From contig QKGJ01000362.1 in NCBI GenBank assembly GCA_003251275.1, forward strand, positions 1 through 34,744: a stretch of 34,744 bases of DNA. The letters run 5' to 3'. Below the pieces are notes generated by a model, which saw only the letters and a program-made list of their open reading frames with translations, was not told the origin of the DNA and did no database searches. Below, in pieces: positions 3,229-13,332 of the stretch. Within the stretch, counting starts at the first letter, position 1, and the number at the start of each line of letters is the position of its first letter. This stretch comes from Ignavibacteria bacterium. Lineage in GTDB: Bacteria > Bacteroidota > Ignavibacteria > UBA10030 > UBA6906. A program made the translations under genes and the position numbers.

Positions 3229-4269
3229 TTACGTGAACAAAGTGAGTTCATTCCCCCTGGCCCTCTGAATGTTGAGGTGTCGAAAGGCAATCTCCGTGGC
3301 CTCCCTGCCGCGGGAAGTTCTCTTGAGAAAACCCTCCTGGATGAGGAATGGCTCGTAAACTTCTTCGATTGTTCCCGGCTCTTCAGCAACAGCAACCGCA
3401 AGCGTGTTGAGCCCAACCGGGCCACCGTCGTATTTTTCAATAATACAGCGAAGAATTCTCTTGTCCATTTCATCCAAACCCCGCTCATCAACTTCGAGTG
3501 CGCGTAGTGAAAAATCGGCTACTTCCTTCGCAATGATGCCATCATGATTTCTTAGCCGCTCGTCGGCCTGAGCGAAATCACGGCATCGCCGTAAGAGCCG
3601 GTTGGCGATGCGGGGGGTTCCACGCGAACGCTTGGCAATCTCCGCAAGACCATCATTTGCATACCGAATCTCAAGGAGTTTCGCCGATCTATGAAGGATT
3701 TGTTCGATGACGGCTGAAGAATAGTAATCAAGACGGTTTGCAATACCAAAACGCGCGCGCAAGGGAGCAGTCAGAAGGCCCGCCCGCGTGGTCGCGCCGA
3801 CGAGCGTGAAGCGGGGAAGAGTCAATTGAATGCTTCGGGCGCTTGGTCCTGAGTCGATCATTATGTCGAGACGAAAGTCCTCCATTGCAGAATACAGATA
3901 TTCTTCCACCACGGGGTTGAGCCGATGAATTTCGTCGATAAATAGAACGTCACCCTCCTCGAGATTCGTTAAGATCCCGGCGAGATCTCCCGGTTTATCC
4001 AGCACCGGCCCGGAGGTTATCCGGATTTGGCTTCCCATTTCATTCGCTATGATGTATGCAAGGGTTGTTTTTCCCAGTCCGGGTGGGCCGGTGAGGAGAA
4101 CGTGATCAAGGGATTCACCCCGTTGTCGTGCGGCCGTCATGAAGATCTTCAGATTCTTTGTGATCTTCTCCTGGCCGCAGAAGTCCTGGAACGAGAGAGG
4201 ACGAAGAGAATGGTCAAAATCGATCTCTGCCGGGAGGCGGTCAGGTGTTGAGTAATCTGATTTTCGCAT
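3229..4269 (-). CDS. ruvB: Holliday junction branch migration DNA helicase RuvB
   Basis: RuvB is the hexameric AAA+ motor that drives branch migration of Holliday junctions together with RuvA. The 346-residue protein shows the family order: N-terminal [14 protein letters not shown], Walker [13 protein letters not shown], Walker [12 protein letters not shown], the RuvB-specific beta-hairpin region around [15 protein letters not shown], sensor 1 in [11 protein letters not shown], and an arginine-rich sensor 2 region [13 protein letters not shown]. The C-terminal winged helix ends with [19 protein letters not shown]. All catalytic motifs are intact and length is normal. It follows ruvA after a 68-bp gap in the order yebC-ruvC-ruvA-ruvB, a common bacterial arrangement. 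Confidence 0.98.
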
Positions 4270-4337
4270 GCGTCAAGGTAATACTTCACCTGAAGAATTA
4301 CAATAAAGGTCTTGCGGAGTTGATTTGATGATGGATT

Positions 4338-4934
4338 CTATGCAGTTACCTTTCGGAGAGCGGCTTTGATAAGCCCTTCGAGGGTTACGGTCTTTCCATC
4401 GGCTTCGTTGAGTGCGGCGGTGATTCCCCTTTCGGCCATCCCACGTGAGTACCCCAACGATGTCATGGCGAGAAGAGCTTCCTGATGAATGGAACCTGAC
4501 AATGCAGCGTCGGAGGAGCGACCCCCATCAAATCGTTCAAGCTTGTCACGGAGTTCAAGAACCAGCCGCTCGGCAAGCTTGCGCCCGACGCCGGGAATCG
4601 CAGTCAGCGCTTTGAGATTTCCTGTTTTGACATGCATTTTCAGATCAGCAACGGATATTCCAGAGAGGATTCCCTGCGCCATTTTGGGGCCGATACCGGA
4701 AACAGAAACGAGCATCCTAAAAGTTGTCCGCTCCTGCTCCGTTGCAAAGCCGAAGAGTTGGAGGATGTCCTCCCGAACATACAGGTACGTCAAAAGGGTG
4801 CATGTAGTATTAAGAGCACCGAGAGCTTCAAACGTCGAGAGGGGAATGTTCAGGCCATATCCCACACCTCCAACATCGATCAAGACTTCAGTCGGACTTT
4901 TCTGCATAAGGGTGCCGCGGAGAGATGAGATCAT
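4338..4934 (-). CDS. ruvA: Holliday junction branch migration protein RuvA
   Basis: RuvA is the junction-binding tetramer that holds Holliday junctions in an open square form and recruits RuvB. The 198-residue protein has the N-terminal OB fold (MISSLRGTL with VDVGGVGYGL-like strand IDVGGVGYGLNIP), two helix-hairpin-helix motifs (VSGIGPKMAQGILSGI and IPGVGRKLAERLVLEL), and a C-terminal RuvB-binding domain (LLAMTSLGYSRGMAERGI). Length and motifs are normal. Its ATG overlaps the ruvC stop by 4 bp (ATGA), indicating translational coupling with ruvC. Confidence 0.98.
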   Translation of the reverse strand: MISSLRGTLMQKSPTEVLIDVGGVGYGLNIPLSTFEALGALNTTCTLLTYLYVREDILQLFGFATEQERTTFRMLVSVSGIGPKMAQGILSGISVADLKMHVKTGNLKALTAIPGVGRKLAERLVLELRDKLERFDGGRSSDAALSGSIHQEALLAMTSLGYSRGMAERGITAALNEADGKTVTLEGLIKAALRKVTA

Positions 4935-5524
4935 GATCTCACACGCTCGGGATGAGCCTGCACATACGATTTCCAGTCTCGATGCCTGGAAGTCGGCGTG
5001 ATCAGGCGATGAAGGTGGCAGATGGCGACGGCGAGTGCATCGGAGCTATCGAGCGCCATAACCGAATCAGCAGTGCCCAGTATGGATTGAACCATAAACT
5101 TAACCGCATTCTTTGATGCGGTCCCTTTCCCAACGACCGCTTTCTTCACTTCTCGAGGAGAGTACTCTGAAGTTGGGATTTCCTGCTCAACGGCGGCGAG
5201 AATAGACACTCCACGCGCATGGCCCAACTTGAGAGCCGACTGGGCGTTCTTTCCGTAGAACGCCGATTCGATTGCGAATTCATCAGGATGGAAAGTGCTA
5301 ATCAGTGATTGAAGTGCGGAATAGATTCGCTTCAGCCGCACCGGCATGGATGAGTCCGGTGAATTGCGAATGACTCCGCTACTCAATAGCTTCAATGTGG
5401 AGCCTCTTCTCTCAACGATCCCGTACCCGGTGACTAATGTGCCGGGATCGATCCCCAGCACGACTATGGAGGAATGATGGTTCGTGGTTCTGCGGCGCGA
5501 GATATCCCGCTGGCGCTCACCCAT
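4931..5524 (-). CDS. ruvC: Crossover junction endodeoxyribonuclease RuvC
   Basis: RuvC is the resolvase that cuts Holliday junctions with paired symmetric nicks after RuvAB branch migration. Catalytic acids are visible: Asp in LGIDPGTLVTGYG, Glu in EFAIESAFYGKNAQSA, and the paired Asp residues in ALDSSDALAVAICHLH. The ATG at 5524 overlaps the yebC stop by 8 bp and gives 197 residues, with about 24 residues before the usual start of the fold. That leader is basic (GERQRDISRRR). A GTG inside VVLGIDPG would give the standard short N-terminus but has no ribosome-binding site. A longer frame to 5581 would lie inside yebC and is less likely. The gene overlaps ruvA by 4 bp downstream. Confidence 0.95.
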   Translation of the reverse strand: MGERQRDISRRRTTNHHSSIVVLGIDPGTLVTGYGIVERRGSTLKLLSSGVIRNSPDSSMPVRLKRIYSALQSLISTFHPDEFAIESAFYGKNAQSALKLGHARGVSILAAVEQEIPTSEYSPREVKKAVVGKGTASKNAVKFMVQSILGTADSVMALDSSDALAVAICHLHRLITPTSRHRDWKSYVQAHPERVRS

Positions 5525-6278
5525 TAATCTTCGCCATTTCCGTTTCGTCGATATCAAAGTTGGCGTACACGTTCTGCACATCGTCGTGTTCTTCCAACGC
5601 TTCCATTAGTTTCAACACTTGTTCTGCTTCTTTCCCGGTTACTTTCACAGTGTTATCCGGAACCATTTGCAGGGAGGCGGTTTCAATTTCGATGCCCTTA
5701 TCTTCGATGGCTTGCTTCACCTGCTCAAATGAATGCGGAGTGGTTGTCACTGTAAAAACCTCATCTTCATTCTGCAGGTCATCGGCTCCGGCTTCAAGAA
5801 CAATGGGAAGGAGGTCATCCTCCGTCACGGAGGAATTCTTCCCCGCAGTCGGAATTACGATTGTTCCCTGACGACTAAACATCCACGCGACGCTCCCGGA
5901 ATTTCCGAGGTTGCCGTTGTTTCGGGAAAAGATATGTCGCATCTCGGACACCGTCCGATTGTTGTTGTCGGTGACGATCTCAGCAAGGATCGCGACGCCG
6001 CCCGGGCCATAGCCTTCGTACGTGAGTTCTTCGTATGAAACGCCTTCAAGTTCTCCCGTTCCTTTTTGGATTGCACGAGTAATATTGTCGGCGGGCATGT
6101 TTGCTGCCTTCGCGGTCTGGATTGCCAGGCGGAGGCGAGGATTGCCTTCGGCATTTCCGCCCCCATTCCGTGCCGCGATGGTGATTTCCTTGATCAGTCG
6201 AGTAAACAGCCGACCCCGCGCTGAGTCTGTTGCTGCCTTCTTCCTCTTGATTGTTGCCCATTTTGAATGGCCGGACAT
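5517..6278 (-). CDS. yebC: YebC/PmpR/TACO1 family protein
   Basis: This 253-residue protein is a full-length YebC-family member. The family was first annotated as transcriptional regulators (PmpR, YebC) and later linked to translation of difficult proline-rich stretches. Diagnostic segments are the N-terminal MSGHSKWATIKRKKAA, the GRLFTRLIKEI helix, DNITRAIQKGTGE, YEGYGPGGVAILAE and the DLQNEDEVFTVTT segment in domain 2. A strong ribosome-binding site (TAAGGAGATG) precedes the ATG. The gene sits between recJ and ruvC, and yebC next to ruvCAB is a widespread arrangement. The end overlaps the chosen ruvC start by 8 bp. Confidence 0.96.
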   Translation of the reverse strand: MSGHSKWATIKRKKAATDSARGRLFTRLIKEITIAARNGGGNAEGNPRLRLAIQTAKAANMPADNITRAIQKGTGELEGVSYEELTYEGYGPGGVAILAEIVTDNNNRTVSEMRHIFSRNNGNLGNSGSVAWMFSRQGTIVIPTAGKNSSVTEDDLLPIVLEAGADDLQNEDEVFTVTTTPHSFEQVKQAIEDKGIEIETASLQMVPDNTVKVTGKEAEQVLKLMEALEEHDDVQNVYANFDIDETEMAKING

Positions 6279-6308: not shown

Positions 6309-8036
6309 TTATCGAATATCTCGAACTTTTAGTTGAGGAACAACATCACCTTTTCTTCCTCCGGACGGCGCAGGCGACTCATGCTCATCGATGGAGAACA
6401 CGCACTCGAGGTCTTTCCTCCCGGTGCTGACCTTGGGCAACAAGTCCCCAAGACCGAATCCTATCGCATCAAACACCACCCCGTTCTGCCGAACACGAAA
6501 CCGCAAGTGGTTTTTTCCCACGATTCGCGGATTCCCGAACACTTCAAGATTTCGCGCAAGAAAAGTCGGCTTCATATTCTTAGGCCCAAAGGGAGCAAAC
6601 TCCTTCAGAATTCTTATGAATTTCGGAGTCATATCCTTTAGCGAAATTTCCACATCGATATGAATCTCTCGAGTTTTCATTTCCTCGGTCATCAGCTCAT
6701 TGACGACATCATTGAACGCTTGACGAAATTCGTCCACCCTTTCAATTTCGACAGTCAGGCCGGCCGCGTATTTGTGACCCCCAAACTGAATGATCTTGTC
6801 CTCGCACCGCTTTAGAGCCTGGAAGATATCAAATCCGGAAACGCTTCGTGCTGAACCTTTTGCCACGCCGTCCACTGTCGCCATCATGATCGACGGCTTG
6901 TAGTATTTTTCAACCATGCGGGAAGCGACGATTCCGACAACGCCCGGATGCCAGTGTTCCTGGTGGAGAACGAGCGCGGCATCCGTATCAATATTGAGTA
7001 CCGATTCAGCAAGTTCCTGTGCTTCTGCAAACGTTTCTTCGTCGATACGACGACGGTTGAGATTCTCCTCCTCCAAGACCTGCGCGAGTCGATGGGCTTC
7101 TTCCGGGTTTGTGCTGGTCAGCAGACGGACGGCGCGCATTGCATCGCCCAGTCGTCCCACCGCGTTAATACGAGGAGCAAGCATAAAAACCACCTGCCCT
7201 GTTGTTATCTTGCCGATTTCCAGTCCCGATGTTTCAATCAATGCTCGAATACCGGGCCGTGGATTAGAGTTGATGAGTTCCATACCTTCACGCACGAGCA
7301 CCCGATTCTCATCGATCAACGGCACAATATCGGCGGTACTTGCCAAAGCGACAAAATCCATGTACGACGTCAGCGTTGACTCCATTCCTAACTTACGGGC
7401 AATTCCCTGAATGAGCTTGAACCCGACACCGCATCCGCACAACGATTTGAAAGGATAGACATCACCGTCTCTCAAAGGATCGAGGGTCGCAAAAGCATTT
7501 GGAAGTGAAGAGCCGGGCTCGTGGTGGTCGCAAATGATCATGTCGATCCCCTTGGAACGGGCGAGCTCTGCTTGTTCTACGGCGGTGATGCCGCAATCAA
7601 CAGAGAGAAAGACCGAGTAGCCTTCCGCATGTGCTTTCTCAACCCCCTGATTGGAGATTCCATAACCTTCGATAATTCGGTCAGGAATGTAGAAGTCAGC
7701 CAACCCGCCGAGATCTTTGATGAACAGGTAAAGCATTGCAGCCCCGTTTGTTCCGTCGACGTCATAGTCGCCAAACACGAGGATCTTTTCATGCGATTGA
7801 ATTGCAGTGATCAGTCGCGCGGTTGCTTCCTCCATACCCGTCATCAAGAAGGGGTCGTTCAGCAGCTGAACGGTTGGTCGGAAGTAGGCTTTGGCGGCAT
7901 CGTAGGTGGTGATGCCGCGGTTGACAAGAATTGTCGAGATTTCCCGGGGAACATTGATTTCCTCGGCCAATCGCGAAACAACGTCCGCAGGTTGCTCAAC
8001 GAGCGTCCAGCGGTGTTCCTTAATGAGAGAGTTCAA
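6309..8036 (-). CDS. recJ: Single-stranded-DNA-specific exonuclease RecJ
   Basis: RecJ is the 5'-3' exonuclease acting on single-stranded DNA in recombination and mismatch repair, and a DHH-family phosphoesterase. Metal-binding motifs are DYDVDGT (residues 90-96), VDCG (about 146-149) and CDHHEPG (DHH at 170-172), followed by RFGVG-like GCGVGFKLIQ. The DHHA1 motif is GGHKYAAG (about 419-426), and a C-terminal OB-like region ends the protein. At 575 residues it has the normal length. The start is TTG with GGAG five bases upstream; no better ATG fits the N-terminal homology. It lies 95 bp downstream of the rnpB 3' end and 30 bp upstream of yebC. This sets recombination exonuclease and junction resolution genes in one unit. 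Confidence 0.96.
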   Translation of the reverse strand: MNSLIKEHRWTLVEQPADVVSRLAEEINVPREISTILVNRGITTYDAAKAYFRPTVQLLNDPFLMTGMEEATARLITAIQSHEKILVFGDYDVDGTNGAAMLYLFIKDLGGLADFYIPDRIIEGYGISNQGVEKAHAEGYSVFLSVDCGITAVEQAELARSKGIDMIICDHHEPGSSLPNAFATLDPLRDGDVYPFKSLCGCGVGFKLIQGIARKLGMESTLTSYMDFVALASTADIVPLIDENRVLVREGMELINSNPRPGIRALIETSGLEIGKITTGQVVFMLAPRINAVGRLGDAMRAVRLLTSTNPEEAHRLAQVLEEENLNRRRIDEETFAEAQELAESVLNIDTDAALVLHQEHWHPGVVGIVASRMVEKYYKPSIMMATVDGVAKGSARSVSGFDIFQALKRCEDKIIQFGGHKYAAGLTVEIERVDEFRQAFNDVVNELMTEEMKTREIHIDVEISLKDMTPKFIRILKEFAPFGPKNMKPTFLARNLEVFGNPRIVGKNHLRFRVRQNGVVFDAIGFGLGDLLPKVSTGRKDLECVFSIDEHESPAPSGGRKGDVVPQLKVRDIR

Positions 8037-8131
8037 CAGATCTCCGGTGAGCTTGGCACAGTACGACCGGCAAGGAGAGAGTAGCGCTCTTTGTGTTGCG
8101 GTATCGCTCGTTGAGCACGGTCAATACTGAG

Positions 8132-8549
8132 TGCAGGTCTGTAAGCCGAATTCTGTCTTCTTCGGGAACCGAAGGAGGCAGCCATTTATCTGGGTCCGCC
8201 GTTGCCGTTGGACTCAAGCGACCTACCCGAGAGTTTCGTTGCAGGAACGCAACTGAAGAAGCGAGCAACTTCTCTCGCAATCGCGATTTCTCTCCTATGT
8301 GGTCTTGCTCCAGGTGGGGTTTGTCTGTTTCTGCTATTACTAGCAGACCGGTGAGCTCTTACCTCGCCTTTTCACCCTTACCGTCGATCGCCCGAAGGAC
8401 AACAAACGGCGGTATCTTTTCTGCGACACTTTCCGTCTCGGAGGATTTTCATCCTGCGAGCCCCCGCTGTTCGCGGGGCACCTCGCTCCGTGGAGTTCGG
8501 ACTTTCCTCATCGTAGATTGTTGTCCACGACGCAGCTGCCCGACCTGCA
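8132..8549 (-). ncRNA. rnpB: RNase P RNA, bacterial type A
   Basis: This is the catalytic RNA that removes the 5' leader from pre-tRNA. On the minus strand the conserved core appears in order: GAGGAAAGTCCGAACTCC (8492-8509), then GGTAAGGGTGAAAAGGCGAG with a following GTAAGAGCTCACCGG (about 8349-8382), and the 3' block ACAGAATTCGGCTTACAG (about 8138-8156). The P1 helix closes the molecule: TGCAGGTC at 8542-8549 pairs with GACCTGCA at 8132-8139, which sets the ends to within a few bases and gives about 418 nt. A weak -10-like TACAGT sits just upstream of the P1 start without a convincing -35. No terminator follows before recJ, so the RNA may be processed from a longer transcript. Confidence 0.96.
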
Positions 8550-8612
8550 TGGTGACTGTATTTGTTTATTAAAAGAAAGAATCTCTTCGGAAACTCGGAC
8601 CCATTGGCGATC

Positions 8613-9356
8613 TTACTGTGCTGCGGTCTCCTTTCCTTCCGCTATCTGGCTGGGGACGAGAATGCGCCCGCAATGCTCACACATGTAAATCCGCTTGCTC
8701 TGTCTGAGTTCCAGCACCTTCTGGGGTGGTACAAGGTTGAAGCACCCTCCACACGCTCCACGGACAAGTCCCACGATGGCTTTCCCACCCCGTTTTGAAT
8801 CACGTATCCGCTGATATGTCTCCAGTAACGGGCGCTTGATTCCCTCGACTGCCCTCGTTCGCGCTTTACGATACTCATTTTCTTCTGCATCCGTTTCCTT
8901 AGATACCTCGGCGAGGGCTACACGCTTTTCTTCCAGGGTCTTTTCAAGCTCGACTATTTGGAGTTTCACGGTTTCGATATCAGTGCGAGCGGTAGTTCCT
9001 TTGTTCTCCAGGTCTTGCATTTCTTTTTCAAGTTTTGCTATGCTTGCAACCGCGGAATCCATTTCGCGCGTCAGAGCGTCATATTCCTTATTGTTCCGAA
9101 CCTCCAATTGCTGAGATTTGTATCGTTCCACTTTCTCTCGCAGGGAAACGATGTCGCTGTCCGCAAGATCGCGTTCGGCAAATGACTGTTTCATCGTTGC
9201 CTCCAGATTCGCCAACTCCGTTTTCCGTTGCGCGTATTGATCCTCCAACTCCTTGACCTGTAAAGGCAGATCACCCTTCATCTCCTCCAACTCATCCAGG
9301 TTTGTATCGATCTTTTGCAGTTCGTACAGGCGGCGCAATGTATCTTCCAATGTCAC
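8613..9356 (-). CDS. C4-type zinc-ribbon coiled-coil protein (CdsZ/CT398, DUF164-type)
   Basis: This 247-residue protein consists of a long N-terminal antiparallel coiled coil (residues about 5-175, rich in E, K, L and Q with heptad spacing) and a C-terminal zinc ribbon. The ribbon cysteines are CGGC and, after about 22 residues, CEHC followed by GRILV. This architecture matches the CdsZ/CT398 (DUF164) family, whose exact function is unsettled; it has been linked to secretion chaperoning in Chlamydia and to RNA metabolism by gene context. It is 18 bp downstream of the nif3-like gene and upstream of rnpB. The trio nif3-like, zinc ribbon and rnpB is known as a neighbourhood in other phyla, for example actinobacteria. 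Confidence 0.9.
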   Translation of the reverse strand: MTLEDTLRRLYELQKIDTNLDELEEMKGDLPLQVKELEDQYAQRKTELANLEATMKQSFAERDLADSDIVSLREKVERYKSQQLEVRNNKEYDALTREMDSAVASIAKLEKEMQDLENKGTTARTDIETVKLQIVELEKTLEEKRVALAEVSKETDAEENEYRKARTRAVEGIKRPLLETYQRIRDSKRGGKAIVGLVRGACGGCFNLVPPQKVLELRQSKRIYMCEHCGRILVPSQIAEGKETAAQ

Positions 9357-9374: not shown

Positions 9375-10484
9375 TTATGAATAATATCGTACTGGATTGG
9401 TCGACGTCACCGCCGCTTCAATTCTAAGATGCTCCGATTTCGTTTCCATCGACTCGGTCAACTTCTTGACAATAGAGTAGACAACCGGTTGCTCGGTTTC
9501 GTAGTGACCGGCATCGATAAGCGCAATTCTACCTGCTGCATCATGAAAAGCATGGTATCGAACGTCCGCGGTGACGAACGCATCTGCTCCTTGTGCTATC
9601 GCTTCCAAGAGGAGTTCCGATCCGCCTCCCCCGCATACCGCAACACGCGAAATTGGTTTTTCCGGGTTGCCCACATACCGCAGGGCCTTCACCTTCAGCT
9701 TGTTCTGTATCTCTTTCAGAAATTGAGCGAGGGGAATAGTTTTTTCCAGTTCACCGACTACTCCCTCCCCATAGCCTCCGTGATAATTTGCAAGTGGGTA
9801 TCGATCGAACGCGACTTCCTCGTATGGATGCGCAGCTTTCAATGCGGTAACCACTTTCGGGGCGTTCCAGGAATCAACAATCATCTCCAATCGAACTTCT
9901 GATGAAGTTTCAAGCTGGTTCTTGGCACCGACTGTCGGGTGAGACTGACTGTTTCCCTGGAATGTCCCCGTTCCCTCGGTGCGAAACGAACAGTTCTCAT
10001 AATTTCCGATCACCCCGGCACCTGCTGACGCCATTGCAGATGCGACCCGATTAACGTGTTCTGCCGGAACAAATGTTACTACCTTTTCTTGTTCTTGATA
10101 TGGCTTCCGTAAGAAGTCGAGTTTTTGAAGACTCAGTGATTTGGCCAACGCAAAGCTTGTACCGCCGAACGTGAAATCCAAATTCGTGTGGGCGGTAATC
10201 AGATTCATTTCGTGGAGAATCATTTCGCGCAACACCGCTGCCGCTCCACCTGTCGTCGTAACACTCCGGAGGGGTTTGAAGAGAAGAGGATGATGGCTGA
10301 TAATCAGGTTTGCCTTTTTTGATACCGCTTCTTTCACAACATCGCTAGTGACGTCAAGAGCCACCAGGATGCCTGTGACCGTCGTGTGCGGGTTGCCGAT
10401 CTCAAGGCCGACGTTATCTCGCTCCCACGCTAACTGCTTTGGAGCCCATCGCTCAACAATATCCTGGATATCACGGACGATCAT
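9375..10484 (-). CDS. Nif3-like dinuclear metal centre hexameric protein (YqfO type)
   Basis: The 369-residue protein belongs to the Nif3 family, often called GTP cyclohydrolase I type 2 or YqfO; its cellular role is not settled. The metal-binding motifs are ISHHPLLFKP near residue 66, AHTNLD after it, and a C-terminal DAGHYETEQP segment. Between the two halves sits a CutA-like insert (VTFVPAEHVNRVASAMASAG through YEEVAFDRYPL), typical of the longer YqfO type. The chosen ATG at 10484 starts MIVRDIQDIVERWAP as in homologues. A frame extending to 10535 would run through the terminator hairpin and is rejected. It is probably the first gene of the leftward run and is preceded by a hairpin and U-tract, so attenuation is possible. 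Confidence 0.92.
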   Translation of the reverse strand: MIVRDIQDIVERWAPKQLAWERDNVGLEIGNPHTTVTGILVALDVTSDVVKEAVSKKANLIISHHPLLFKPLRSVTTTGGAAAVLREMILHEMNLITAHTNLDFTFGGTSFALAKSLSLQKLDFLRKPYQEQEKVVTFVPAEHVNRVASAMASAGAGVIGNYENCSFRTEGTGTFQGNSQSHPTVGAKNQLETSSEVRLEMIVDSWNAPKVVTALKAAHPYEEVAFDRYPLANYHGGYGEGVVGELEKTIPLAQFLKEIQNKLKVKALRYVGNPEKPISRVAVCGGGGSELLLEAIAQGADAFVTADVRYHAFHDAAGRIALIDAGHYETEQPVVYSIVKKLTESMETKSEHLRIEAAVTSTNPVRYYS

Positions 10485-10504
10485 GAACAGTACGGCCGTC
10501 CTAC

Positions 10505-10536
10505 AAAAAAAGTGTCCCGCTGATGGGCGGGACACT
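10505..10536 (-). terminator. Intrinsic terminator between the receiver/H-box gene and the nif3-like gene
   Basis: Read on the minus strand, a perfect 10-bp stem AGTGTCCCGC/GCGGGACACT encloses the loop CCATCA and runs into seven T (stem 10511-10536, T-tract 10505-10511). No T-tract follows on the plus strand, so it acts leftward. It ends only 20 bp before the nif3-like ATG. It may terminate the receiver/H-box transcript, or work as a conditional terminator in the leader of the nif3-like operon. Confidence 0.88.
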
Positions 10537-10544
10537 CAGTGTCG

Positions 10545-10604
10545 CTATACAAAATATGCTCGGGGAAAGATTCGTATTCGTATGGGAAGGTTCATTGGTG
10601 CCAT
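10545..10604 (-). other. Candidate 19-codon leader reading frame
   Basis: An ATG-initiated frame of 19 codons plus TAG ends nine bases before the terminator stem. It encodes a short basic/hydrophobic peptide (MAPMNLPIRIRIFPRAYFV) with three CGA and two ATA codons. No good ribosome-binding site is visible, and a frame of this length is expected by chance. It is listed because it lies between a candidate promoter and the terminator, where attenuator peptides are found. Confidence 0.2.
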
Positions 10605-10634
10605 GAACTATTGCATGTTCTTGACTGCCTCGCT

Positions 10635-10663
10635 AATATAGGCAATACACATATGAGAAGCAA
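10635..10663 (-). promoter_or_regulatory. Candidate sigma-70 promoter for the nif3-like operon
   Basis: On the minus strand TTGCTT (10658-10663) and TATATT (10635-10640) are separated by exactly 17 bp. The -10 matches five of six consensus bases and the -35 three of six. Transcription would start near 10628 and give a leader of about 140 nt containing the short reading frame and the terminator hairpin. This is inferred from sequence only. Confidence 0.4.
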
Positions 10664-10685: not shown

Positions 10686-11348
10686 TCAGGTGTTTTGGAA
10701 GTCGATTCGGTCAAGATTAAGATCACGAAGTTTTGTGATTTCTTTCTCGATAATGCGAATATTCGTGTCGAGGGAGGCCACCATCGTTTTTTCCTCTGTC
10801 GACAGGTTGTGTTTTTTTAGGATATCAGTACTTATTTTCATTGCCGCAAGAGGATTGTTGAATTCATGGCACACGGTTACGATAAGTTCCTTAACGGCGT
10901 CCGCCTTTCTTCGGGCAATCAGGTCGTGCCTGAATTGGTCTGCAGTTAGTTTCTTTGATTTCGCTCGTTTGTAGATTTGAAATACTGTATCGGGAAAGCT
11001 TGCATTCATTACTTCCCCCTTCACCAGATAGTCTTCCACCCGATACTTGATTGCTTCAATGGCCAGTCGGAAGTCTTTTTCTGCTGAAAGAAAGACAACC
11101 GGGATTTCATTGCCCTTTTCACGAATAGTGCGTGTGATTTCCAGGCCGTTTTGATCAGGAAGATTGTAATCGAGAAGAAGCAGTTCGATCGAGGGGTTCG
11201 CGTCTAACGCGGCCAGTGCAGATTCCCCGTCGCCTTTCCAAATAGCACGAAAAGAAGCATTCTTGTAATTCGCAAGAAGGTGATCTGCAACTTTTGTGAA
11301 GGCCACGTCGTCATCGACGCAGAGAAGGGTAATGGAATTGTCAGCCAT
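10686..11348 (-). CDS. Response-regulator receiver fused to a HisKA-like dimerisation segment, no ATPase domain
   Basis: Residues 1-125 form a receiver domain with acidic pocket VDDD (11-13), phospho-acceptor Asp60 in LLLDYNLPDQNG, the Ser in VVFLSAEKD and Lys110 in DYLVKGE. Residues about 140-215 resemble the HisKA dimerisation and phosphotransfer helix pair, with an H-box VCHEFNNPLAAMKI around His161. The protein stops at 220 residues, without the N, G1 and G2 boxes of an ATPase domain, and no such domain occurs in any frame before the terminator 150 bp later. It cannot autophosphorylate by itself. It may be a phosphorelay intermediate, a dimerising receiver, or a partner for a kinase encoded elsewhere. 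It is divergent from the next two regulator genes, and a TTGCAA-17-TATCAT promoter precedes it. Confidence 0.85.
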   Translation of the reverse strand: MADNSITLLCVDDDVAFTKVADHLLANYKNASFRAIWKGDGESALAALDANPSIELLLLDYNLPDQNGLEITRTIREKGNEIPVVFLSAEKDFRLAIEAIKYRVEDYLVKGEVMNASFPDTVFQIYKRAKSKKLTADQFRHDLIARRKADAVKELIVTVCHEFNNPLAAMKISTDILKKHNLSTEEKTMVASLDTNIRIIEKEITKLRDLNLDRIDFQNT

Positions 11349-11491: not shown

Positions 11492-11558
11492 CGAGGGCAC
11501 TAGTAATAGCAGTTTGAACAATTAGTGGCGACTCCCCAGACCAAATTTGGAGCGGAAT

Positions 11559-11927
11559 ATGGCCGACAAAAGCAAGATACTCGTGGTGGATGATGAAGAA
11601 TCATTGCGCACGGTGTTGAGTGGGGAACTAACGGGCGAAGGGTATGACGTCCGTACGGCTTCGGATGGGGACGAAGCAATTGCGGAATTAAAAAAGGACT
11701 CCTTTGACTTGTTACTCCTTGATATTAAAATGCCCCGGGTTGATGGATTTGAAGTGTTGAAATTTGTCAAGGAAAAGAACCCTGATACCAAAGTCGTGAT
11801 GCTCACGGCATTTGCGGATCTAAAAAATCCAATTGAAGCGAAGAAGTTGGGGGCTGAAGACTTCGTCAGTAAGCCATATGATCTGGTGGACCTTCTGACA
11901 ACGCTAGAAAGAGTCCTCCATGAATAG
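11559..11927 (+). CDS. Single-domain response regulator (CheY-like receiver)
   Basis: The 122-residue protein is a bare receiver domain: acidic pair VVDDEE (11-12), phospho-acceptor Asp55 in LLLLDIKMPRVDG, Thr in VMLTAFAD and Lys in FVSKPYD. No output domain follows; the frame closes and a new gene begins 37 bp later. The ATG at 11559 is chosen over a TTG 12 bases upstream because GGAG (11549-11552) lies at the right distance for the ATG. Its receiver closely resembles that of the next gene (shared VDDEESLRT, MPRV-G-EVLKFV and KPYD), suggesting duplication. It could be a phosphate sink or phosphorelay shuttle. The partner kinase is unknown. Confidence 0.93.
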   Translation: MADKSKILVVDDEESLRTVLSGELTGEGYDVRTASDGDEAIAELKKDSFDLLLLDIKMPRVDGFEVLKFVKEKNPDTKVVMLTAFADLKNPIEAKKLGAEDFVSKPYDLVDLLTTLERVLHE

Positions 11928-11964: not shown

Positions 11965-13332
11965 ATGTCCCGCAAGTTCAACCTTCTGATTGTTGATGAC
12001 GAGGAATCTCTCAGAACACTTCTGGAGAGCGAGCTTGAGGAATCAGAAGAATTCTCCGTCGATACTGCCGCGGACGGGGGGCAGGCAATCAATGCAATTC
12101 AGGCGAAGGTGTATGATATCGTGCTCCTTGATATCCGTATGCCTCGCGTGAATGGTATAGAGGTTCTGAAGTTCGTTCAAGAGTATTCTCCTACCACGCA
12201 AGTCATCATCCTCACAAACTACGCCGATGTAAAAACCGCGATCCAAACAATTAAGATGGGGGCATATGATTTTCTTGCAAAGCCATACGATATCGATGAG
12301 CTTTACAACACCATCCACCGCGCAATAGAGCGACGACAGCTTTTCATCGACAACAAGCTGATGAAAAACGAGCTTTCGAGAAAGGCGGGGAGCCCCGAAC
12401 TAATCGGCCAGAGCCCTTCATTTCTCAAGTTGATTGAAAGCGCAACGCGCGTGGCGGCGAGCGATTCATTTGTTCTTATACAGGGTGCATCAGGGACGGG
12501 GAAGGAACTCATCGCGAATCTCATCCATCGTCGAAGCCCGAGAAGCAGTCGCCCTTTTGTCGCCCTCAACTGTGCCTCGATACCGGACTCGCTGTTGGAG
12601 AGTGAACTGTTCGGTCACGAAAAAGGGGCATTCACCAACGCAATCAATACAAAGCAGGGGTTAGTGGAGGTTGCAAATGGCGGAACTCTCTTTTTAGATG
12701 AGGTCGGTGATATCAGCCCATCTATTCAGCCGAAGTTATTGAGGTTTCTCGAGACCGGAGAGTTTCGGCGGGTCGGGGGAACGAATCTCCTTGCAGTGGA
12801 CGTGCGCGTTGTTACTGCGACTAACAAAGACCTTCGGGAAGAAGTCAGCGCAGGGAGATTCCGGGAAGACTTGCTATATCGATTGAACGTCTTTACCTTG
12901 TTCGTTCCTACACTCGCAGAGAGGAAGGATGATATTCCCGTTCTTGCCGAGTATTTTCTTCAGAGGAAATCCAAGACGAAGAACCCAAAAAAGTTGACTG
13001 CCCAGGCTCTCTCACTCCTGATGTCGTATGAATGGCCAGGAAATGTCCGCGAGTTGGAGCATGTCCTCGAGGGTGCCCTTATTCTCTCCAGCGGGGATTA
13101 TATCGAGGAAGGCGATCTTTCTATGTACTTCCAACGACTGGGGACCATCGGTGAGGATGTGCCTAGCGAAGATTCTGGCAGTATATCGCTCGATGATCTG
13201 GAAAAAGTTCACATTGAAAGGGTTTTGCGAGATCAGAACTACAATCGATCAAGGTCAGCAGAAATATTGGGGATCAGTATCAAGACTCTTTATCTGAAAA
13301 TAAAGAAATATGGTCTTCCTGTTCCCGACTAA
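11965..13332 (+). CDS. Sigma-54-dependent response regulator (NtrC family)
   Basis: This 455-residue protein has three parts. A receiver (1-120) carries Asp56 in LLDIRMPRVNG and Lys in FLAKPYD. A sigma-54 interaction AAA+ domain (about 143-370) shows Walker A GASGTGKE (174-181), Walker B GTLFLDEVGD (240-249) and arginine-finger region RFREDLLYRLNV. A Fis-type helix-turn-helix (about 426-452) ends it, with NRSRSAEILGISIKTLYLKIKKYG. The sigma-54 contact loop reads GAFTNA (221-226) instead of GAFTGA. The conserved Thr is kept, so activity is likely but coupling may be altered. It is cotranscribed with the upstream single-domain receiver, and a terminator follows at 13414. Target genes cannot be inferred; no clear -24/-12 promoter was found in the window. 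Confidence 0.95.
   Translation: MSRKFNLLIVDDEESLRTLLESELEESEEFSVDTAADGGQAINAIQAKVYDIVLLDIRMPRVNGIEVLKFVQEYSPTTQVIILTNYADVKTAIQTIKMGAYDFLAKPYDIDELYNTIHRAIERRQLFIDNKLMKNELSRKAGSPELIGQSPSFLKLIESATRVAASDSFVLIQGASGTGKELIANLIHRRSPRSSRPFVALNCASIPDSLLESELFGHEKGAFTNAINTKQGLVEVANGGTLFLDEVGDISPSIQPKLLRFLETGEFRRVGGTNLLAVDVRVVTATNKDLREEVSAGRFREDLLYRLNVFTLFVPTLAERKDDIPVLAEYFLQRKSKTKNPKKLTAQALSLLMSYEWPGNVRELEHVLEGALILSSGDYIEEGDLSMYFQRLGTIGEDVPSEDSGSISLDDLEKVHIERVLRDQNYNRSRSAEILGISIKTLYLKIKKYGLPVPD

What the first reader, a model, noticed from the sequence alone, without database searches (positions are those of the whole stretch)
10485..10663. Attenuator-like leader in front of the nif3-zinc ribbon-rnpB-recJ-ruvCAB run
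Seen on the minus strand: a TTGCTT-17-TATATT promoter candidate, a 19-codon ATG frame ending in TAG at 10545, then a perfect 10-bp hairpin with seven T, only 20 bp before the nif3-like start. The hairpin's first arm (AGTGTC) can also pair with GACACT just upstream (about 10535-10545), a weak competing antiterminator. There is no room for a promoter between hairpin and gene. Unless internal promoters feed the long run, transcription must read through a strong terminator, so conditional readthrough is a sensible reading. The chief doubt is that the hairpin may simply end the upstream receiver transcript.
Basis: partly seen in the sequence, partly recalled or inferred. Interest (0 to 1): 0.6.

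Follow-up and report, generated by a model that had tools for sequence, protein, structure and literature searches.

The report
Translated leader gating the nif3 operon
In front of the nif3 gene of this bacterium, and of about 80 relatives, a strong promoter makes a very short message that encodes a tiny peptide and then hits a transcription stop signal right before nif3, so the gene cluster is probably switched on only when a ribosome reading the peptide keeps that stop signal from forming.

Summary
The reported promoter, 19-codon frame, 10-bp hairpin plus T7, and nif3 start are real. Comparison with relatives turns the sequence-only guess into a well-supported attenuator. In 82 of 85 same-order loci, and in other families of the class, an intrinsic terminator lies directly before nif3, with its T-tract ending about 3-30 nt from the start codon. 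A strong TTGnnn-17-TATATT promoter sits about 55-140 nt further up. The hairpin covaries. The gene upstream changes between families, but the Zn-ribbon gene always follows nif3, so the leader belongs to nif3. In 69 of 72 genus-level leaders an ATG frame of at least 15 codons runs to or into the hairpin (18 expected from shuffles). Its dN/dS is 0.49, against 1.11 and 0.81 in the other frames. The start codon often lies 0-9 nt from the predicted transcription start. The weak GACACT antiterminator is not conserved. Most likely this is ribosome-occlusion attenuation, pyrBI-like in logic: a ribosome translating to the stop codon at the hairpin prevents termination. No RNA or protein data exist, the signal sensed is unknown, and one family (f26) has a tRNA-Leu gene instead of the frame. 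New variant of a known kind.

The parts
10658..10663 (-). -35 hexamer TTGCTT
   Evidence: promoter class over-represented in relatives, 71 of 72 leaders vs 6.3 in shuffles
10635..10640 (-). -10 hexamer TATATT (17-nt spacer); predicted transcript start about 10628
   Evidence: TATATT in 44 of 72 genus-level leaders
10545..10604 (-). Leader frame, 19 codons plus TAG: MAPMNLPIRIRIFPRAYFV; 8 nt lie between its stop codon and the hairpin
   Evidence: homologous frames show dN/dS 0.49
10511..10536 (-). Intrinsic terminator hairpin, 10 bp, loop CCATCA
   Evidence: covariation in relatives
10505..10511 (-). T7 tract of the terminator (first T paired)
9375..10484 (-). nif3 / DUF34 gene, the controlled gene
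   Evidence: Pfam PF01784, E 3.8e-75
8613..9356 (-). CT398-like coiled-coil, C4 zinc-ribbon gene, always next to nif3 in leader-bearing loci with enough sequence
8126..8551 (-). RNase P RNA (rnpB), no promoter-like match just upstream
6309..8036 (-). recJ, possible further member of the run
3229..6278 (-). yebC, ruvC, ruvA, ruvB, possible further members of the run

Best explanation
The 10485-10663 segment is a transcription attenuator of the nif3 operon worked by a ribosome. A strong sigma-70-type promoter starts a short leader RNA. A ribosome loads near its 5' end and translates a tiny peptide whose stop codon lies just before (in many relatives inside) an intrinsic terminator that stands directly in front of nif3. 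While that ribosome is close behind the polymerase it covers the 5' arm of the hairpin, the terminator cannot form, and transcription enters nif3, the zinc-ribbon gene and, in this genome, rnpB and perhaps recJ-yebC-ruvCAB. If the leader is not translated in time, the hairpin forms and the transcript ends as an RNA of about 120 nt. Shown here by comparison: promoter, terminator, link to nif3, coding selection on the frame, frame end at the hairpin, no conserved antiterminator. Inferred: ribosome occlusion as the switch, its direction (translation = on), and the signal (translation capacity, or supply of Lys/Arg codons).
For: Terminator immediately before nif3 in 82 of 85 order loci and in other families of the class. 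Covarying hairpin. Promoter 71 of 72 vs 6.3 in shuffles. Frame reaching the hairpin in 69 of 72 genus-level leaders vs 18.3 in shuffles, 22 reverse-complemented, 14 reversed. dN/dS 0.49 vs 1.11 and 0.81 in the other frames, 1 partner stop vs 53 and 39. ATG at -1..+9 of the predicted start in 42 of 72 leaders vs 8-18 in other windows; 39 of those 42 frames reach the hairpin. Receiver gene absent upstream in f4, f5, f9, f14, f24 while the zinc-ribbon gene stays with nif3. Terminators so close before genes are rare: 6 of 306 in 400 kb of a relative. In E. coli a stop codon 5 bp before terminator tR2 cut termination from about 90% to below 10%, and uncoupling translation abolished this (PMC4824070); pyrBI attenuation rests on the same coupling (PMC5021804).
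Against: No RNA, ribosome-profiling or reporter data; transcript starts are predicted. Family f26 has a tRNA-Leu gene in place of the frame, yet keeps the hairpin. A few leaders lack an ATG frame reaching the hairpin, e.g. both loci of genus g23, where it stops 41-45 nt before. The window's own frame starts about 24 nt from the predicted start, without a Shine-Dalgarno sequence. Coupling of ribosome and polymerase in Bacteroidota is not established here.
Confidence: 0.6

Rival explanations
1. A separate small gene (a basic micropeptide with its own promoter and terminator) sits in front of nif3, and nif3 lives on constant leaky readthrough of that terminator without regulation.
For: The frame is under purifying selection. 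Every signal of a free-standing gene is present. Family f26, with a tRNA gene at this place and the same hairpin, fits simple leakiness.
Against: No amino-acid motif is shared between families and ten peptides have no significant Pfam match. What is kept is where the frame ends relative to the hairpin. The unit stays with nif3 while the upstream gene changes.
Confidence: 0.2
2. Attenuation by a nascent-peptide or codon-specific ribosome stall (Lys/Arg-rich peptide, trp- or erm-like) rather than by occlusion at the stop codon.
For: K+R are 24.5% of residues vs 17% expected from base composition and 19-22% in the other frames; peptides are partly conserved within genera.
Against: No shared arrest motif or regulatory codon run, and no excess of alternative pairing that a stalled ribosome would release.
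Confidence: 0.12
3. The hairpin simply ends the upstream receiver-gene transcript and nif3 has another promoter.
For: The receiver gene ends at 10686, on the same strand, about 150 nt upstream.
Against: The hairpin is kept where the receiver gene is not found upstream. A strong promoter lies between receiver and hairpin. The 3-30 nt after the T-tract cannot hold a promoter.
Confidence: 0.04
4. The leader is a trans-acting small RNA ending at the hairpin.
For: Strong promoter, short transcript, strong terminator, and a hairpin core alignable between families.
Against: No Rfam family; leader length varies from about 55 to 140 nt; the selection seen is in codons; little but the hairpin folds reliably in the window's leader.
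Confidence: 0.04

Closest known systems
pyrBI (pyrL) attenuator of Escherichia coli
   Same: A leader frame runs to the intrinsic terminator, and a closely following ribosome prevents the hairpin; no antiterminator structure is needed (PMC5021804).
   Different: Other target genes; no long U tract in the window's leader that could slow the polymerase at low UTP; many leaders have a start codon almost at the 5' end and no Shine-Dalgarno sequence.
trp/his/ilv leader-peptide attenuators
   Same: Promoter, short leader peptide, intrinsic terminator before an operon.
   Different: No run of regulatory codons and no conserved alternative pairing.
Stop-codon-proximal terminator repression in the E. 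coli tR2 reporter (PMC4824070)
   Same: Same geometry: stop codon within a few nt of an intrinsic terminator.
   Different: That is a synthetic reporter; here the geometry is kept by evolution over an order and beyond.

Membership tests
Ribosome-mediated transcription attenuators (general kind) | Intrinsic terminator between promoter and first structural gene | tested here: met
Ribosome-mediated transcription attenuators (general kind) | Translated leader frame before the terminator | tested here: met
   dN/dS 0.49 vs 1.11 and 0.81; 69 of 72 leaders; comparative evidence only, no ribosome profiling
Ribosome-mediated transcription attenuators (general kind) | Termination changes with leader translation | not testable with these tools
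   needs a reporter or Term-seq
pyrBI-type attenuator | Leader frame extends to or through the terminator | tested here: met
   stop at -20 or later relative to the hairpin start in 69 of 72 leaders
pyrBI-type attenuator | U-rich pause tract and UTP sensing, pyrimidine genes downstream | tested here: not met
   longest T run of the window's leader upstream of the hairpin is 4; genes are nif3 and zinc ribbon
trp/his-type leader-peptide attenuator | Antiterminator pairing with the terminator's 5' arm | tested here: not met
   pairing no longer than in shuffles, 5.1 vs 5.2
trp/his-type leader-peptide attenuator | Run of regulatory codons for the operon's amino acid | tested here: not met
   no common codon run in the listed peptides; only a modest K+R excess
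Rfam cis-regulatory RNA or riboswitch | Match to a covariance model | tested here: not met
   no family at gathering threshold here; best sub-threshold hit is on the other strand, E 1.7

The most novel reading that the evidence does not exclude
A general translation-capacity gate: in branches of Bacteroidota outside Bacteroidia, transcription of nif3-zinc ribbon (and, in this order, of RNase P RNA and perhaps the repair genes behind it) is licensed only when a ribosome initiates almost at the 5' end of the leader and reaches a terminator-proximal stop codon in time. This would be a conserved, ligand-free sensor of ribosome availability whose peptide is free to drift.
Probability: 0.35. Interest if true: 0.72.

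Novelty: new variant of a known kind. Interest (0 to 1): 0.6.

Why it matters
NIF3/DUF34 is a near-universal protein whose function is still argued about (PMC8469502 proposes metal chaperone or insertase); a conserved switch on its operon says what its expression is tied to. It would also be a leader-peptide attenuator kept across an order and neighbouring families in a phylum where I found none described, often with a near-leaderless, Shine-Dalgarno-free start, and a natural case of the ribosome-terminator interference shown in E. coli reporters. If RNase P RNA depends on it in this order, tRNA maturation would be coupled to translation.

Tried and rejected
(2) GACACT antiterminator: present in the window, no excess in 72 leaders. 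(3) Known RNA family: none. (4) Hairpin as a repeated terminator element of the genome: unique. (5) Hairpin as terminator of the receiver gene: rejected by synteny. (6) Functional micropeptide: no significant Pfam match. (7) Attenuator tied to rnpB: rnpB not seen within about 1.5 kb in the f14, f24 and f9 loci tested although leader and nif3 are there, so the core target is nif3-zinc ribbon. (8) genome-contig scan with the single nif3 sequence gave only 2 named relatives, so taxonomy beyond 'Bacteroidota, Ignavibacteria-like' is not named. (9) Literature: one paper in the library holds nif3, rnpB and operon together, and judging by its title it is not about this; no paper on this leader surfaced. 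(10) First dN/dS script timed out and was rerun.

Full report
What is in the sequence. On the minus strand a TTGCTT-17-TATATT promoter (10663-10635) is followed by a 19-codon frame (ATG 10604, TAG 10547-10545), a perfect 10-bp hairpin (10536-10511) with T7, and the nif3 start codon at 10484, 20 nt after the T run. The terminator scan finds this hairpin as the only minus-strand terminator close to nif3, and it is unique in the genome at up to three mismatches. Downstream come nif3/DUF34, a CT398-like zinc-ribbon protein, RNase P RNA, recJ, yebC, ruvC, ruvA and ruvB.

Conservation of the arrangement. I collected the region upstream of nif3 from the same order (85 loci), from other families of the class and from the phylum. 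A terminator hairpin with T-tract lies immediately before nif3 in 82 of the 85 order loci. The three exceptions are one masked locus (L100) and two of one genus whose hairpin has moved or lost its T-tract (L104, L107). It is also present in f9, f14, f16, f24 and the single f13 locus of the class, and in f26 and f34 outside it. It is absent in f28 and f38 and was not seen by eye in 20 upstream regions from other phylum members (a few hairpins that the script missed were read by eye). The T-tract ends 3-30 nt before the start codon in nearly all, which leaves no room for a promoter. In 400 kb of one relative only 6 of 306 genes have such a terminator within 45 nt upstream. Over genus-level representatives, stem pairs 3-7 are standard in 75 of 75 fitted hairpins and four of them show more than one pair type (such as T-A/C-G, C-G/A-T, C-G/T-A/G-C). 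The hairpins were chosen by pairing, so the percentage is inflated, but the variety of pair types is not.

The promoter. TTGCAT, TTGATT or TTGCTT with 17-nt spacing and TATATT recurs: 71 of 72 genus-level leaders score 10.5 or more, against 6.3 in shuffles, and 55 against 0.9 at 11.5. The -35 variants were chosen after seeing the data, so the excess is somewhat overstated.

The frame. An ATG frame of at least 15 codons that runs to or into the hairpin exists in 69 of 72 genus-level leaders, against 18.3 expected from dinucleotide shuffles, 22 when the leader is reverse-complemented and 14 when reversed. Over 21 within-group pairs dN/dS is 0.49 (bootstrap 0.38-0.62) in frame and 1.11 and 0.81 in the other two frames; changed codons are conservative in frame (mean BLOSUM 1.02 vs 0.15 and 0.43); partner sequences carry 1 stop in frame against 53 and 39. 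Codon position 3 holds 162 of 377 changes (one pair was entered twice there). So the frame is very probably translated, but the peptide evolves fast and I saw no common motif between families; it is K+R-rich (24.5% vs 17% expected). In 42 of 72 leaders an ATG lies at -1 to +9 of the predicted transcript start, against 8-18 for other windows of the same width, and 39 of those 42 frames reach the hairpin. Shine-Dalgarno-like sequences are almost absent (2 of 69). In the window itself the frame starts about 24 nt from the predicted start.

Whose terminator it is. The receiver/HisKA gene lies upstream in f1 and nearly all f3 and f6 loci and most f2 loci, but was not found in f4, f5, f9, f14 or f24, while the zinc-ribbon gene was found next to nif3 in every leader-bearing locus with enough sequence. 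The leader therefore travels with nif3. RNase P RNA is in the neighbourhood in f1, f3, f4, f6 and f26 but was not seen within about 1.5 kb in the f14, f24 and f9 loci tested, so nif3-zinc ribbon is the core target.

Mechanism. I found no conserved sequence competing with the terminator: leader pairing with the 5' arm is as in shuffles, and in the window little but the terminator folds strongly. What is conserved is a translated frame whose stop lies at the hairpin. In E. coli this geometry is known to disable an intrinsic terminator: moving a stop codon from 28 to 5 bp before tR2 cut termination from about 90% to below 10%, and removing translation abolished the effect (PMC4824070). The pyrBI leader works on the same principle (PMC5021804). 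I therefore read the element as a translation-gated attenuator: translation of the leader permits transcription of nif3 and what follows. The direction and the physiological signal are inferences.

Limits. There are no expression data. Transcript starts are predicted. Two features do not fit a purely ribosomal switch: f26, where a tRNA-Leu gene replaces the frame but the same hairpin stays, and the few leaders whose ATG frame does not reach the hairpin (two of them may start at GTG). Why the hairpin keeps an alignable sequence between families, and not only pairing, is unexplained.

Verdict. The interpretation as an attenuator is supported, with a different switch than the one proposed. It is a new variant of a known kind, mechanism confidence about 0.6.

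Noticed in passing
L069, L070, L071, L074 (family f26), just upstream of nif3: A tRNA-Leu gene stands where the leader frame is in other families, followed by the same ATGCACG-type hairpin and T-tract 13-16 nt before nif3; the tRNA and nif3 probably share a promoter.
   Followed up: partly
window 10511-10536 and relatives: The outer part of the hairpin (RTGYMC type) can be aligned between families although the leaders cannot; sequence, not only pairing, seems to be kept. Unexplained.
   Followed up: partly
window 8126-8613, minus strand: RNase P RNA lies between the zinc-ribbon gene and recJ without a promoter-like match just upstream, so it may depend on the nif3 promoter and its attenuator.
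   Followed up: partly
window 10686-11348, minus strand: Receiver domain fused to a HisKA-like dimerisation segment with no ATPase domain found by Pfam; divergent from two further receiver-domain genes (11547-11927 and 11965-13332, plus strand).
   Followed up: no
G022:C6 394816-395821 (-) and 377278-378529 (+) (loci L157, L156): An NrnA-like phosphoesterase gene and a nucleotidyltransferase-like gene (both named from the first residues only) also have a terminator-like hairpin 13-18 nt before the start codon; other attenuated genes may exist in this group.
   Followed up: no
L104, L107 (genus g33): One genus keeps the GTGTCCCG hairpin core but has lost the intact terminator arrangement directly before nif3.
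   Followed up: no
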